Source of the DNA: Puniceicoccales bacterium Verruco_02
GTDB taxonomy: Bacteria; Verrucomicrobiota; Verrucomicrobiia; Opitutales; Oceanipulchritudinaceae
Assembly (NCBI GenBank): GCA_001604585.1
Contig: LVBW01000014.1
Location: 62,271 to 126,270, forward strand
DNA length: 64,000 bases
Direction: 5' to 3'
Below the pieces are notes generated by a model. That model searched no databases. It worked only from the letters and a program-made list of their open reading frames with translations, and was not told the DNA's origin. The position numbers were made by a program, and so were the translations under genes. Of the stretch, positions 22,999-29,840 are shown piece after piece (within the stretch, counting starts at the first letter, position 1; every line of letters starts with the position of its first letter).

Positions 22999-23871
22999 TT
23001 ACAGGCTTCCCTCCTTGATGTTCTTCAAGGCGCGGCGCATTTCCAACTCCTCCAGAAGGGCGCAGAGGGCGGCCTCGTCGCGGGGCGGACAGTCAAGGCT
23101 CTCCACGGGCACTGCGTAGTCCAAGGTGGTCATGACAAGGTTGCGCCGCAGCAGTTCGCGGCTCTGGTAAACGAGGTTCTGGAAACGCTGGGGCTTAAGG
23201 TCGCCGCAATTGGCTATCACCCCTTCTAGGCTGCCGAACTGGGCCAGCCACTTGGCCGCCGTCTTCGGCCCCACCCCGTCGAGGCCGGGGATGTTGTCGG
23301 AAGTGTCGCCGACAAGCGCCAATAGGTCCGCGACTTTCGAGGGCGGCACGCCGAACTTCTCCTCCACGCCTGCTGAGTCGATCTCGCGCCAGCCAGCGGC
23401 GGCGTTCGCCGTTGGTGGAGGCAGAAGCTGAGTGACGCCGGGAAGGGCTATGCACTGGCCCAGATCCTTGTCCGCGCTGACTATTACAACGCTGTGTCCT
23501 TCCGCGGAGAGGCGCTTTGCCCATGTCGCAATAAGGTCGTCGGCCTCCACGCCCTCCTTCTCTATCGCCCCAAAGCCCATCAGCAGGGCCAAACGCTTGA
23601 TATAGGGCATCTGTGCACGCAGGGCATCGGGCATGGCGGCGCGGTTGGCCTTGTATTGGGATAGCAAGGCCTCCTGACGGCTCGCCCCGCCAAGGTCGAA
23701 AAACACCACGCTGCGCCCCGGCTCGCCGCTGCGGGACAGGTGCAGCAGCGTGTTCAGCCAGCCGTGAATTGCCCCCGTGGGCAGGCCGTCGGCACGGGAA
23801 AGGGTGTCGGGCATGGCGTAAAACGCACGGAACACCATGTTGTAACCATCGACGAGCAGGTACCTTGCCAT
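22999..23871 (-). CDS. stand-alone 5'-3' exonuclease / flap endonuclease (Pol I N-domain type)
   Basis: A 290-residue protein equivalent to the 5'-3' exonuclease domain of DNA polymerase I. It starts RYLLVDGYNMVFRAFYAMP. The metal-binding acidic residues lie in VVFFDLGG, EGVEADDLIATWA and VSADKDLGQCI. The helix-hairpin-helix is in LVGDTSDNIPGLDGVGPKTA. It could process Okazaki fragment flaps, with a Pol I lacking this domain elsewhere. ATG at 23871 is preferred; 23880 and 23892 are in frame. It lies directly upstream of comEC. Confidence 0.9.
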   Translation of the reverse strand: MARYLLVDGYNMVFRAFYAMPDTLSRADGLPTGAIHGWLNTLLHLSRSGEPGRSVVFFDLGGASRQEALLSQYKANRAAMPDALRAQMPYIKRLALLMGFGAIEKEGVEADDLIATWAKRLSAEGHSVVIVSADKDLGQCIALPGVTQLLPPPTANAAAGWREIDSAGVEEKFGVPPSKVADLLALVGDTSDNIPGLDGVGPKTAAKWLAQFGSLEGVIANCGDLKPQRFQNLVYQSRELLRRNLVMTTLDYAVPVESLDCPPRDEAALCALLEELEMRRALKNIKEGSL

Positions 23872-24050
23872 GCGCACCATGTTGCCAGACAAGGGGCCGC
23901 CGCGCCAGAGTTAAGAATCGGGAAACGCTGGTACATCACAGACGCACAGCCTCCGCCGCGCGCCATGCGCTACTTCTGCCTCTGTTCCTGCTGGCAATCG
24001 GGCGCAGAGTTTACTTAACTAGCCAGCTTCAGCCTCATCCATATCCAGCA

Positions 24051-25277
24051 ATGACCTCCGCCGAAGTCCGCCAGTCCTTCCTCGATTTCTTCCGCTCCAA
24101 GGAGCATGAGATTGTCGAAAGCGCATCGCTGATGCCCTCCTCGCCGAACCTGCTCTTCACAAACGCAGGCATGAACCAGTTTGTGCCCTACTTCCTCGGC
24201 GACCGGCCAGCCCCCTTCAAGCGCGCTGCGGACACGCAAAAGTGCATCCGCGCCGGGGGCAAGCACAACGACCTAGAGGACGTTGGCTTCGACACCTACC
24301 ACCACACAATGTTCGAGATGCTGGGCAACTGGTCCTTTGGCGACTACTTCAAGAAGGAGGCGCTGGAGTGGTCATGGGAGTTGTTGACCAAGGTCTGGGG
24401 GATGCCTGCCGAGCGCCTGCACGCCACTGTTTACAAGCCCGGAGCTGGCGACCCGGCTGAGTTCGATCAGGAAGCCTACGATGTCTGGGCCGCCATCTAC
24501 CGCGCCGAGGGCCTCGACCCCGAAAAGCAGATCCACTACGGCAACAAGAAGGACAACTTCTGGATGATGGGCGAGACCGGCCCCTGCGGCCCATGTTCCG
24601 AGGTCCACATCGACCTTACCCCCGATGGCAATGGCGGACACCTCGTCAACGCGGGCACGCCCTGGTGCATCGAGATCTGGAACGACGTGTTCATGCAGTT
24701 CAACGCCACCGAGGACGGACGCTTCGTCCCGCTCAAGGCAAAGCATGTCGATACGGGCATGGGCTTCGAGCGCGTGGCGGGCATCATGGCCACGACCGAT
24801 GGCTTCAAGGACTTCACCAAGGCGCCAAGCAACTACAACGCGGACGTTTTCGCCCCGATATTTGCAAAAATCAGCGAGATGAGCGGTAAAAGCTACGGAC
24901 GCACGATGCCCGAGGACCGCAACAATCTTTCGCCCGAGGAAATGCGCGATGTCGTGTTCCGCGTCCTGGCCGACCATGCGCGCGCCCTTTCCTGCGCCAT
25001 CGCCGACGGCATACTGCCGGGCAACGAGGGGCGCAACTACGTGCTGCGCCGCATCCTGCGCCGCGCCATCATGTTCGGCCGCCGTCTGGACCTTAAGCCG
25101 GGCTTTTTCACAGAGCTAGTGGCGCCGGTTGTCGAGACTCTGGGTGGCACATTCCCGGAGCTAGTCGAACGCCGCGAGGTGATAGAGAAGGTAATCCGAA
25201 GCGAGGAGAGCGCCTTCGACCGCACCCTGGACCGCGGCCTTCAGGAGTTCGAGAGAATAGTGGCAAGACTGGGCTAG
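24051..25277 (+). CDS. alaS: alanyl-tRNA synthetase, catalytic part only (truncated relative to family)
   Basis: The first 408 residues are a well-conserved class II AlaRS core. MTSAEVRQSFLDFFRSKEHE at the N-terminus is followed by LLFTNAGMNQFVPYFLG (motif 1), RAGGKHNDLEDVG and FEMLGNWSFGDYFKKEA (motif 2), KDNFWMMGETGPCGPCSE, and ADGILPGNEGRNYVLRRILR (motif 3). The frame then ends at TAG after ERIVARLG, inside the tRNA-recognition helices. A normal AlaRS is about 870 residues, with editing and C-Ala domains. No continuation is visible in any frame after 25277; the fucokinase gene begins 122 bases on. It may be a catalytic-only paralogue, a broken gene, or an assembly join. Confidence 0.85.
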   Translation: MTSAEVRQSFLDFFRSKEHEIVESASLMPSSPNLLFTNAGMNQFVPYFLGDRPAPFKRAADTQKCIRAGGKHNDLEDVGFDTYHHTMFEMLGNWSFGDYFKKEALEWSWELLTKVWGMPAERLHATVYKPGAGDPAEFDQEAYDVWAAIYRAEGLDPEKQIHYGNKKDNFWMMGETGPCGPCSEVHIDLTPDGNGGHLVNAGTPWCIEIWNDVFMQFNATEDGRFVPLKAKHVDTGMGFERVAGIMATTDGFKDFTKAPSNYNADVFAPIFAKISEMSGKSYGRTMPEDRNNLSPEEMRDVVFRVLADHARALSCAIADGILPGNEGRNYVLRRILRRAIMFGRRLDLKPGFFTELVAPVVETLGGTFPELVERREVIEKVIRSEESAFDRTLDRGLQEFERIVARLG

Positions 25278-29075: not shown

Positions 29076-29840
29076 TTATCGCAGTATTCTCCACTGGCCT
29101 CTGGCCACCCATCCAATCCATCCAGCGTCGCGCAGGACTTGCAGTTGCTGCCTGATCTTGGCCTCGATATTGCGGTTCTCTGGGAACAGGGAAGCAAGAA
29201 CGGCTTTGTGCGCGTACACATCCTCGTTTGTAAACTGAACCGGCATACTCCTTGCGCATACAATGCGAAGGACTTCAGCCGTCCATCCAGAACGTAGCGC
29301 CTCTGATCGGAACCGTGAAAGGCTATCGAAATCCCCGCGAACAAGTTCCTCATTACGCAACTGGCCTTTGACAACAAGAGGGATGAACAAGCGGTCGTCG
29401 AGATTGCCAAGATCGAGTATGCAGCCTTGCCAGCCAGCTCTGCGGGCATTGGGACCAAGTGGCTTGCGCGCAACGATGGCACTCTTGGGAAAAAGAAAAC
29501 CCGGCAAGCAGGATAGACCTGTAACGGCCCAAGCATCCGCATCGTAGCTCATCAATAGTAGCGATGGCACTTCGCGTTTGTCGAAAGCCTCATGCATAGC
29601 GGAAAGAGCACCATCGGTAATCCGACGAGTGGACTTTCTCGACGCCTTTAATTGGTAGCGTTCCTTGCAACTGGCGCACACAAAGTCACTTGCGCGGGCA
29701 TTGTTATCAAGAGCCGATATCTGCCCCTTCGCATTACATGCCACGCATGGGATGTTTTCACGCACCCATAGTTCGCTCGACCATCGAATTCTTTGCGGTG
29801 GCGAGCGGTAACGTGAAGGCGGAGCTGGAAGGGCGATCAC
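29076..29840 (-). CDS. DpnI-family type IIM restriction endonuclease (cuts adenine-methylated GATC)
   Basis: At 254 residues it has the same length and domain plan as DpnI. An N-terminal PD-(D/E)XK nuclease contains a zinc site (C32, C35, C55, C58). It has IVARKPLGPNARRAGWQGC, which matches DpnI's SIIQRKPLAPTARRAGWIGC. The C-terminal winged helix ends KIRQQLQVLRDAGWIGW. Candidate active-site residues are D52, Q63 and K65; DpnI has D, E and K, so glutamine replaces glutamate. The start is a GTG at 29840. No methylase gene is adjacent, as expected for a methyl-dependent enzyme. G+C is about 53-55% in two sampled 60-base stretches, below neighbouring genes, which suggests transfer. Confidence 0.9.
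   Translation of the reverse strand: MIALPAPPSRYRSPPQRIRWSSELWVRENIPCVACNAKGQISALDNNARASDFVCASCKERYQLKASRKSTRRITDGALSAMHEAFDKREVPSLLLMSYDADAWAVTGLSCLPGFLFPKSAIVARKPLGPNARRAGWQGCILDLGNLDDRLFIPLVVKGQLRNEELVRGDFDSLSRFRSEALRSGWTAEVLRIVCARSMPVQFTNEDVYAHKAVLASLFPENRNIEAKIRQQLQVLRDAGWIGWVARGQWRILR

What the first reader, a model, noticed from the sequence alone, without database searches (positions are those of the whole stretch)
29076..29840. DpnI homologue: methyl-directed restriction outside the usual hosts
Seen: same length and domain plan as DpnI with the strongly conserved RKPL-PxARRAGWxGC block, four zinc cysteines and a C-terminal winged helix. The catalytic glutamate position is Q63 (D52, Q63, K65). 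Lower G+C and no neighbouring methylase suggest a stand-alone defence gene against Dam-methylated phage or plasmids. A QxK variant would be an informative active site.
Basis: partly seen in the sequence, partly recalled or inferred. Interest (0 to 1): 0.7.

Follow-up and report, generated by a model that had tools for sequence, protein, structure and literature searches.

The report
DpnI-type nuclease with glutamine active site
This gene codes for a relative of the laboratory enzyme DpnI, which cuts DNA only where GATC carries a methyl mark; its active site has a glutamine where DpnI has a glutamate, and that swap turns out to be shared by many members of the family rather than being a quirk of this one gene.

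Summary
Confirmed: window 29076-29840 (-) is an intact 254-aa DpnI homologue (both Pfam DpnI domains; DpnI closest by sequence, and by predicted fold, pLDDT 94, Z 24.8). Of the catalytic-domain contacts with Gm6ATC named for DpnI, only Ser17 and the non-specific Asn77 are changed. Residue 63 is Gln where DpnI has metal ligand Glu64. New: this is no lone oddity. Of 93 readable rows (window included), 33 have Gln there, with Asp and Lys kept; Gln rows cluster on the tree and span nine named phyla, two archaeal. Gln goes with loss of a conserved Arg at DpnI position 87: 0 of 35 Gln rows but 53 of 57 Glu rows are basic; of 10 further rows 9 obey. PD-QxK is an active site in BisI-family enzymes, the next fold match. 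Best reading: an active, horizontally gained, stand-alone Gm6ATC-dependent nuclease in a (by inference) Verrucomicrobiota genome with no Dam-type gene found. 'Outside the usual hosts' does not hold. Cleavage is untested; a single Glu/Gln split is not rejected.

The parts
29076..29840 (-). DpnI-family gene, 254 aa, GTG start
29298..29840 (-). PD-(D/E/Q)XK catalytic domain, about residues 1-181
   Evidence: PF06044 at residues 10-175; model
29079..29294 (-). C-terminal winged helix (6mA reader in DpnI), about residues 183-254
   Evidence: PF17726 at residues 185-251; model
29652..29654 (-). codon CAA of Q63, the position of DpnI metal ligand Glu64
29646..29648 (-). codon of catalytic K65 (DpnI Lys66)
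29685..29687 (-). codon of D52 (DpnI Asp53, bridging metal ligand)
29772..29774 (-). codon of E23 (DpnI position 25), first-helix acid present in all 32 Gln and 57 Glu rows; possible helper metal ligand by analogy with NhoI Glu50 (inference)
29586..29588 (-). codon of A85 (DpnI Arg87 position), the residue that co-varies with E/Q
29421..29468 (-). RKPLGPNARRAGWQGC, residues 125-140: guanine contacts R125/R134 and methyl pocket L128/R134/W137
29667..29747 (-). zinc-type cysteine cluster C32, C35, C55, C58 (zinc binding is inferred)
   Evidence: Cys in 92 or 93 of 94 rows at each position
29127..29159 (-). winged-helix stretch KIRQQLQVLRD, residues 228-238
   Evidence: part of this motif was the search pattern, so its conservation among those 80 loci is built in

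Best explanation
The gene encodes an active, stand-alone, DpnI-type (type IIM / type IV) endonuclease. The catalytic domain and the winged helix each recognise fully methylated Gm6ATC, and the catalytic domain cuts within the site. Metal binding uses D52 and the side-chain oxygen of Q63 in place of a glutamate, with K65 positioning the water and E23 possibly helping: a PD-QxK site like those of BisI, MspJI and Mrr. It sits alone in a host in which no Dam-type gene was found, so it would attack incoming Dam-methylated phage or plasmid DNA. It was probably gained horizontally. Shown: homology, predicted fold, retained contact residues, Gln shared by many relatives, no Dam-type match in a 96.6% complete genome. 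Inferred: catalytic activity, exact specificity, role in defence.
For: Domains over cut-off; DpnI the only solved sequence relative at E 0.001; model pLDDT 94.0, pTM 0.89; best structural matches 4esj Z 24.8 and 4kyw Z 24.5, then BisI-family Eco15I 10.2 and NhoI 10.2, whose catalytic motifs are QIK and QVK and whose Gln binds the metal. DpnI residues Q18, N48, D53, K66, D78, R126, L129, R135, W138, G140 all kept. 44 of 46 columns conserved in at least 90% of 88 homologues are kept. All 33 Q rows keep D and K, which a dead enzyme would not be expected to do. No PF02086 and no TIGR00571 match in the genome as held. GC3 0.537 against 0.69-0.76 in eight neighbours; no match in 2 congeners and 14 other family members, all drafts.
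Against: I found no assay of this protein or of a Q-type member. The window protein has the longest end branch on both trees (2.02 and 1.98, medians 0.31 and 0.34), so relaxed constraint or altered specificity is possible. Ser17 is Pro (also in 7 of 58 E rows) and Asn77 is Thr. Among 32 genomes with Q-type genes or L110, 12 have a PF02086 match, 11 over the cut-off; that family is wider than Dam, but 2 of 31 Q-type genomes also carry a TIGR00571 (dam) match over its cut-off and 9 of 31 any match. The host keeps one SPPYN methylase and one type III Mod of unknown specificity; the former matches adenine methylases (CcrM, RsrI, MboIIA, weakly DpnA) as well as N4-cytosine ones. A clean empty site could not be shown.
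Confidence: 0.77

Rival explanations
1. Catalytically dead or nearly dead reader: E-to-Q removed cleavage and the protein binds Gm6ATC as a regulator or silencer.
For: Glu64 is a direct metal ligand in DpnI; the window end branch is very long; a regulatory role has been proposed for gonococcal Drg (passages).
Against: D and K are kept in all 33 Q rows; Gln ligates the metal in cleavage-active BisI-family enzymes; Q is found across many phyla.
Confidence: 0.1
2. Active nuclease whose modification or sequence specificity differs from Gm6ATC (other outer bases, or hemimethylated DNA). This overlaps with the best explanation, so the odds need not add to one.
For: Long end branch; Ser17 is Pro and Asn77 is Thr; a 2-residue insertion in the winged-helix part; 2 of 31 Q genomes carry a dam-type gene over the cut-off.
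Against: The guanine and methyl contacts named in the structure paper are kept except Ser17, and R126, L129 and R135 are kept in 30 of 30 other Q rows.
Confidence: 0.12
3. Decaying gene: a recent horizontal gain now drifting.
For: Longest end branch; no match in the relatives searched; a broken DpnI-family frame exists elsewhere in the order (G424).
Against: Intact frame and 44 of 46 conserved columns kept.
Confidence: 0.05

Closest known systems
DpnI (Streptococcus pneumoniae; PDB 4esj, 4kyw) and its homologues FcyTI, Psp4BI, Drg/NmeBII
   Same: Length, two domains, cysteine cluster, D and K of the active site, methyl pocket L129/R135/W138, guanine contacts R126/R135/N48
   Different: Gln instead of Glu64 and Ala instead of Arg87 (relative to DpnI and the gonococcal locus L016; residue 64 of FcyTI and Psp4BI was not looked at); about one third identity (32-34%); no methylase or other restriction gene among the eight neighbouring genes looked at (one has no Pfam match)
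BisI family (NhoI, Eco15I), PD-QXK, 5mC-dependent
   Same: QxK active site on a PD-(D/E)XK core; next-best fold match at Z about 10
   Different: Reads 5mC in GCNGC; 12-16% identity in the structural alignments; no DpnI_C winged helix
Mrr_cat / MspJI PD-QxK nucleases, and winged-helix-Mrr_cat(PD-QXK)-NTPase fusions
   Same: D...QxK motif (passages)
   Different: No Mrr_cat hit in Pfam at E 1e-3; different domain plan

Membership tests
DpnI family (type IIM, Gm6ATC) | PF06044 plus PF17726 above curated cut-offs | tested here: met
   137.6 and 66.7 bits against 26.7 and 23
DpnI family (type IIM, Gm6ATC) | DpnI fold over both domains | tested here: met
   Predicted model: 4esj Z 24.8 over 235 residues, rmsd 3.8; 4kyw Z 24.5 over 244, rmsd 9.4; the large rmsd fits the 75-80 degree domain rotation between the two DpnI structures (passage)
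DpnI family (type IIM, Gm6ATC) | Active site D53-E64-K66 (PD-ExK) | tested here: not met
   D and K present, Q at the Glu position. As 33 of 93 readable family rows have Q, the literal ExK is a feature of DpnI itself and of many relatives, not a fair requirement for the family.
DpnI family (type IIM, Gm6ATC) | Methyl pocket and GATC contacts of the catalytic domain | tested here: met
   Q18, N48, R126, L129, R135, W138, G140 kept; S17 is P and the non-specific N77 is T
DpnI family (type IIM, Gm6ATC) | Cleaves only Gm6ATC | not testable with these tools
   needs expression
DpnI family (type IIM, Gm6ATC) | Host lacks GATC 6mA methylation | tested here: inconclusive
   No PF02086 or TIGR00571 match in a 96.6% complete genome, but no methylome; one SPPYN methylase and one type III Mod of unknown specificity are present, and the former matches N4-cytosine and adenine methylases alike
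Mrr_cat (PD-QxK type IV) | Sequence match to Mrr_cat | tested here: not met
   Only the DpnI and DpnI_C families listed at E up to 0.001
BisI family | QxK site on a PD-(D/E)XK core | tested here: met
   Q63-L64-K65; fold Z about 10
BisI family | 5mC-dependent GCNGC cleavage | not testable with these tools
   6mA pocket residues of DpnI are present instead

The most novel reading that the evidence does not exclude
The DpnI family has two interchangeable active-site designs, Glu64+Arg87 and Gln64+small or aromatic residue, held together by a coupled pair. The Gln form, shared with cut-down phage-borne catalytic domains, may be the older one, and DpnI's textbook PD-ExK the derived one. The natural family would then supply a ready test of what charge at the third metal-ligand position does for rate, metal choice and methyl selectivity.
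Probability: 0.35. Interest if true: 0.6.

Novelty: new variant of a known kind. Interest (0 to 1): 0.45.

Why it matters
DpnI is a standard laboratory reagent and the model 6mA-dependent nuclease, described as PD-ExK in a 2025 review (PMC12707154, passage). A broad Gln-type group, with conserved specificity residues and a co-varying second site, means the family offers natural pairs for testing how the metal ligand's charge shapes catalysis and methyl selectivity. It also warns that annotation by the ExK motif would wrongly call these genes inactive.

Tried and rejected
GATC avoidance as a sign of past restriction: observed/expected 0.56 in the window and 0.69 in 185 kb of the genome, but TATA and GTAC are as low or lower, and the two congeners, in which the gene was not found, give 0.59 and 0.94; not informative.

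Empty-site comparison: of eight window proteins, only the glycosyltransferase and miaA match in the fetched 11 kb of each congener, side by side; the genes beyond the glycosyltransferase look different, so no clean empty site. Flanking repeats: two pairs of 18-nt direct repeats at 83% and one 16-nt inverted pair, no pair that brackets the gene. Promoter and terminator scan: 1 and 3 sites against 0.7 and 1.2 expected; nothing to build on.

Repeated independent E/Q switching: parsimony gives 2 changes on the first tree and 3 to 4 on the second, and starred branches force 2, but an AU test with both trait columns removed does not reject a single split (p 0.285), so recurrence is not shown. The E64/R87 pairing likewise rests on at most 3 independent pairs and cannot reach significance.

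Mobile-element origin: 2 plasmid records (Neisseria gonorrhoeae, records of 2.17 Mb, chromosome-sized; the one fetched is E-type) and 1 phage record (C-terminal part only) match.

Paper searches for a Gln-type DpnI: 'DpnI'+'QXK' gave 5 papers. I saw passages of four (PMC11037411, PMC11347163, PMC12707154, PMC4926085), of the first also the outline, section 13 part 1 of 4 and section 20, and only the listing of PMC8281217. Searches added no paper on this point. Nothing I saw describes Gln at DpnI Glu64; PMC11037411 mentions PD-QXK only for fusions with an Mrr-type catalytic domain in the passages seen. The first DpnI structure paper (Siwek 2012) is not held, and no supplements could be read, so a mention there is not excluded. 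One search, meant for Mrr and QXK, returned unrelated papers.

Coordinates of the model and of 4kyw were not available, so the Glu64-Arg87 distance was not measured. NCBIfam had no match for the window protein.

Full report
What is there. The ORF at 29076-29840 on the minus strand (254 aa, GTG start) is a DpnI homologue: PF06044 137.6 bits, PF17726 66.7 bits, DpnI itself as the only solved sequence relative at E 0.001 (E 5.3e-38), PADLOC mREase_II. AlphaFold2 on 40 sequences gives pLDDT 94.0 and pTM 0.89; the best structural matches are DpnI 4esj (Z 24.8) and 4kyw (Z 24.5), followed by the BisI-family enzymes Eco15I and NhoI (Z 10.2 each).

Surroundings. The neighbours looked at are an alanyl-tRNA synthetase part, a fucokinase/fucose pyrophosphorylase, a protein without Pfam match, a GT4-type glycosyltransferase, miaA, a 6-phosphogluconolactonase/glucosamine-isomerase type protein, a phosphate-binding-type protein and its transporter. 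The gene has G+C 54.1% and GC3 0.537 against GC3 0.69-0.76 in these eight. It is the only PF06044 match in the genome; none was found in 2 of 2 other genomes of the genus and 14 of 14 other genomes of the family, all drafts; 8 of 372 genomes of the order and 15 of 387 of the phylum have one. This fits horizontal gain, though no clean empty site could be shown. The order contains contigs titled Opitutia and Opitutae (L066 and L070 are the same contigs as G343:C22 and G607:C9 by length), so the host is an Opitutales-type Verrucomicrobiota (inference). One genome of the class has a single contig of 2,664,102 bases, a size I recall for Akkermansia muciniphila; it carries an E-type homologue (L002).

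Does the host methylate GATC? PF02086 gives 0 matches and TIGR00571 0 matches in a genome 96.6% complete. PF01555 gives three places: one methylase with an SPPYN motif, and a type III Mod that seems split over contigs C8 and C26 (my reading of the overlap). The SPPYN protein's nearest solved relatives are two entries called methyltransferase, then N4-cytosine methylases, then adenine methylases (CcrM, RsrI, MboIIA and, weakly, a DpnA-type protein); in NCBIfam it matches adenine-methylase models far below their cut-offs. Its specificity is unknown, so GATC methylation is unlikely but not excluded.

Active site. In DpnI the site 1 metal is bound by Asp53 and Glu64 and the main chain of Leu65, and Lys66 is close to the attacking water (PMC4117772, passages). 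The window has D52, Q63, L64, K65. Contacts with the substrate named in passages of that paper were mapped through an alignment with L124 (Streptococcus oralis) as the DpnI stand-in: Q18, N48, D78, R126, L129, R135, W138 and G140 are kept; Ser17 is Pro, and Asn77, said not to contribute to specificity, is Thr. Individual winged-helix contacts were not mapped.

Is Q63 an oddity? No. With 13 other loci and the window, 93 of 94 rows are readable at this position: 60 Glu, 33 Gln, and Asp and Lys are present in all 93. Two contigs are counted twice there (L010/L066, L017/L070); one copy of each and three fragments (L067, L087, L103) were dropped before the tree. Because the 80 are those nearest to the window protein, Gln is over-represented. 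In draws by the Pfam model I read Gln in 4 of 14 family members in the window's phylum (15 hits; L015 below cut-off and unlike), 2 of 10 readable of 12 hits in the phylum of G702 and 5 of 8 readable of 9 hits in the phylum of G721. Each draw contains its centre genome, which is Gln-type, and the centres G702 and G721 were picked for that.

Tree. With the trait column removed, 89 rows (58 Glu, 31 Gln) need two changes of label against about 26 for shuffled labels. The Gln rows come from Verrucomicrobiota, Planctomycetota, Acidobacteriota, Pseudomonadota, Zixiibacteriota, Chloroflexota, Bacillota, Woesearchaeota, Nanohalarchaeota and an unclassified archaeon (record titles). Adding eight Acidobacteriota-draw and three phage proteins (92 rows; eight Psychrobacter/Streptococcus rows left out as redundant) gives four changes: Glu rows L110, L212, L215-L218 inside the Gln side, and Gln rows from Clostridia and archaea inside the Glu side. 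Rooted on the phage proteins, Gln lies at the base, but that root branch is very long. An AU test with columns 64 and 87 removed does not reject a single Glu/Gln split (p 0.285), so repeated switching is suggested, not shown. The window's own end branch is the longest (2.02 and 1.98).

A coupled second site. Of the alignment columns, the one that differs most between the two groups after position 64 itself is DpnI Arg87. Of 92 rows, 53 of 57 Glu rows have Arg or Lys there, and 0 of 35 Gln rows do; the window has Ala (three of the 35 are phage proteins). Exceptions: L007, L115, L212, L215. Four of the six Glu rows inside the Gln side have Arg, and all six Gln rows from Clostridia and archaea lack it. 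I then looked at 11 loci outside those 92 rows: 10 had a letter there and 9 obeyed (6 Glu with Arg, 3 Gln with Ala); L020, a distant member whose alignment is unsure, has Gln with Arg and breaks the rule; L014 has no letter. Of these, L222, L223, L224, L226, L227 and L229 were fetched after the rule was noticed and 6 of 6 obey; L013, L014, L018, L020 and L219 had shown in earlier outputs. L226 and L227 are near copies, and L018 and L229 come from split frames. With at most 3 independent pairs on the tree the sign test cannot reach 0.05. In the model the position lies in the helix after the active-site strand. A charge pair Glu64-Arg87 replaced by neutral Gln-Ala is my inference; no distance was measured.

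Mechanism. Gln can replace the acid: the BisI paper states that Asn or Gln are equally suited as metal ligands, shows the Gln of QVK binding the ion in NhoI, and finds that the active-site changes tested, including that of a first-helix Glu, abolish activity in Eco15I (PMC11347163, passages). The DpnI family keeps a first-helix acid (DpnI position 25, window E23) in all rows of both groups. PD-QxK is also the site of Mrr and MspJI (PMC12707154, passages; PMC3874153 gives D/E/Q x K for Mrr). I therefore expect an active enzyme. Of tested homologues, gonococcal Drg (E-type in L016) cut only methylated pUC19 (PMC4269198, passages), and FcyTI cut fully methylated and, in part, hemimethylated oligos but not unmethylated ones, with weak activity on Dam- pUC19 (PMC11037411 section 20; its residue 64 was not looked at). 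The same paper reports that 87% of over 1,000 winged-helix fusion proteins have no methylase within three genes on either side (section 13 part 1).

Genome conflict. Dam-type (TIGR00571) matches over the curated cut-off occur in 2 of 31 Gln-type genomes (G705, G710) and 7 of 28 Glu-type genomes, two of the latter with stops in the frame; matches of any strength in 9 of 31 and 9 of 28 (59 of the 91 genomes that I first listed were searched). The wider family PF02086 matches 12 of 32 genomes, 11 over the cut-off, in the Gln set plus L110's genome. So Gln-type enzymes were not seen more often with Dam than Glu-type ones, which fits activity on Gm6ATC; the two co-occurrences are unexplained.

Novelty. 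DpnI-like genes, their stand-alone state and PD-QxK sites are all known. What I did not find in print, within the searches named under Tried and rejected, is the Gln-type group of the DpnI family and its pairing with position 87.

Noticed in passing
L198-L203 (IMG/VR contigs; e.g. L198:4980-5486, L202:4980-5477): Viral contigs encode a 165-168 aa DpnI catalytic domain without winged helix, with Gln at the Glu64 position (L198, L202 and L203 aligned; L199-L201 read from the hit) and an NARRAGWQGC block. In four of the five contigs read (L198, L199, L201, L203; not L202) a RecA-like gene lies just upstream, and flap-nuclease-like (L199, L203) and ClpP-like (L199) genes downstream. Gene names are my reading of the sequences.
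   Followed up: partly
G424:C2 (L019, L021), G540:C147 (L018, L022), G1480:C1 (L229, L231): DpnI-family genes broken by in-frame stops (G424) or matching in two separate overlapping pieces (G540, G1480), suggesting recurrent loss of the gene.
   Followed up: no
window 23613-25277 (+): The alanyl-tRNA synthetase reading frame matches only positions 1-375 of the 552-position Pfam model and stops 86 bases before the fucokinase gene; the rest of the enzyme seems to be missing here (split gene, truncation or assembly fault).
   Followed up: no
G705, G710 (Gln-type) and G744, G338, G741, G740, G733 (Glu-type): Genomes that carry both a DpnI homologue and a Dam-type methylase match without stops over the TIGR00571 cut-off: potential self-attack that needs explaining.
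   Followed up: no
L016 / NZ_CP119142.1: A 2.17 Mb Neisseria gonorrhoeae record is filed as a plasmid, but it has chromosome size and holds a DpnI-like gene; likely mislabelled.
   Followed up: no
window and 121 kb more of G000: GTAC and TATA are depleted more strongly than GATC (0.57 and 0.64 against 0.69 of expectation in 185 kb).
   Followed up: partly
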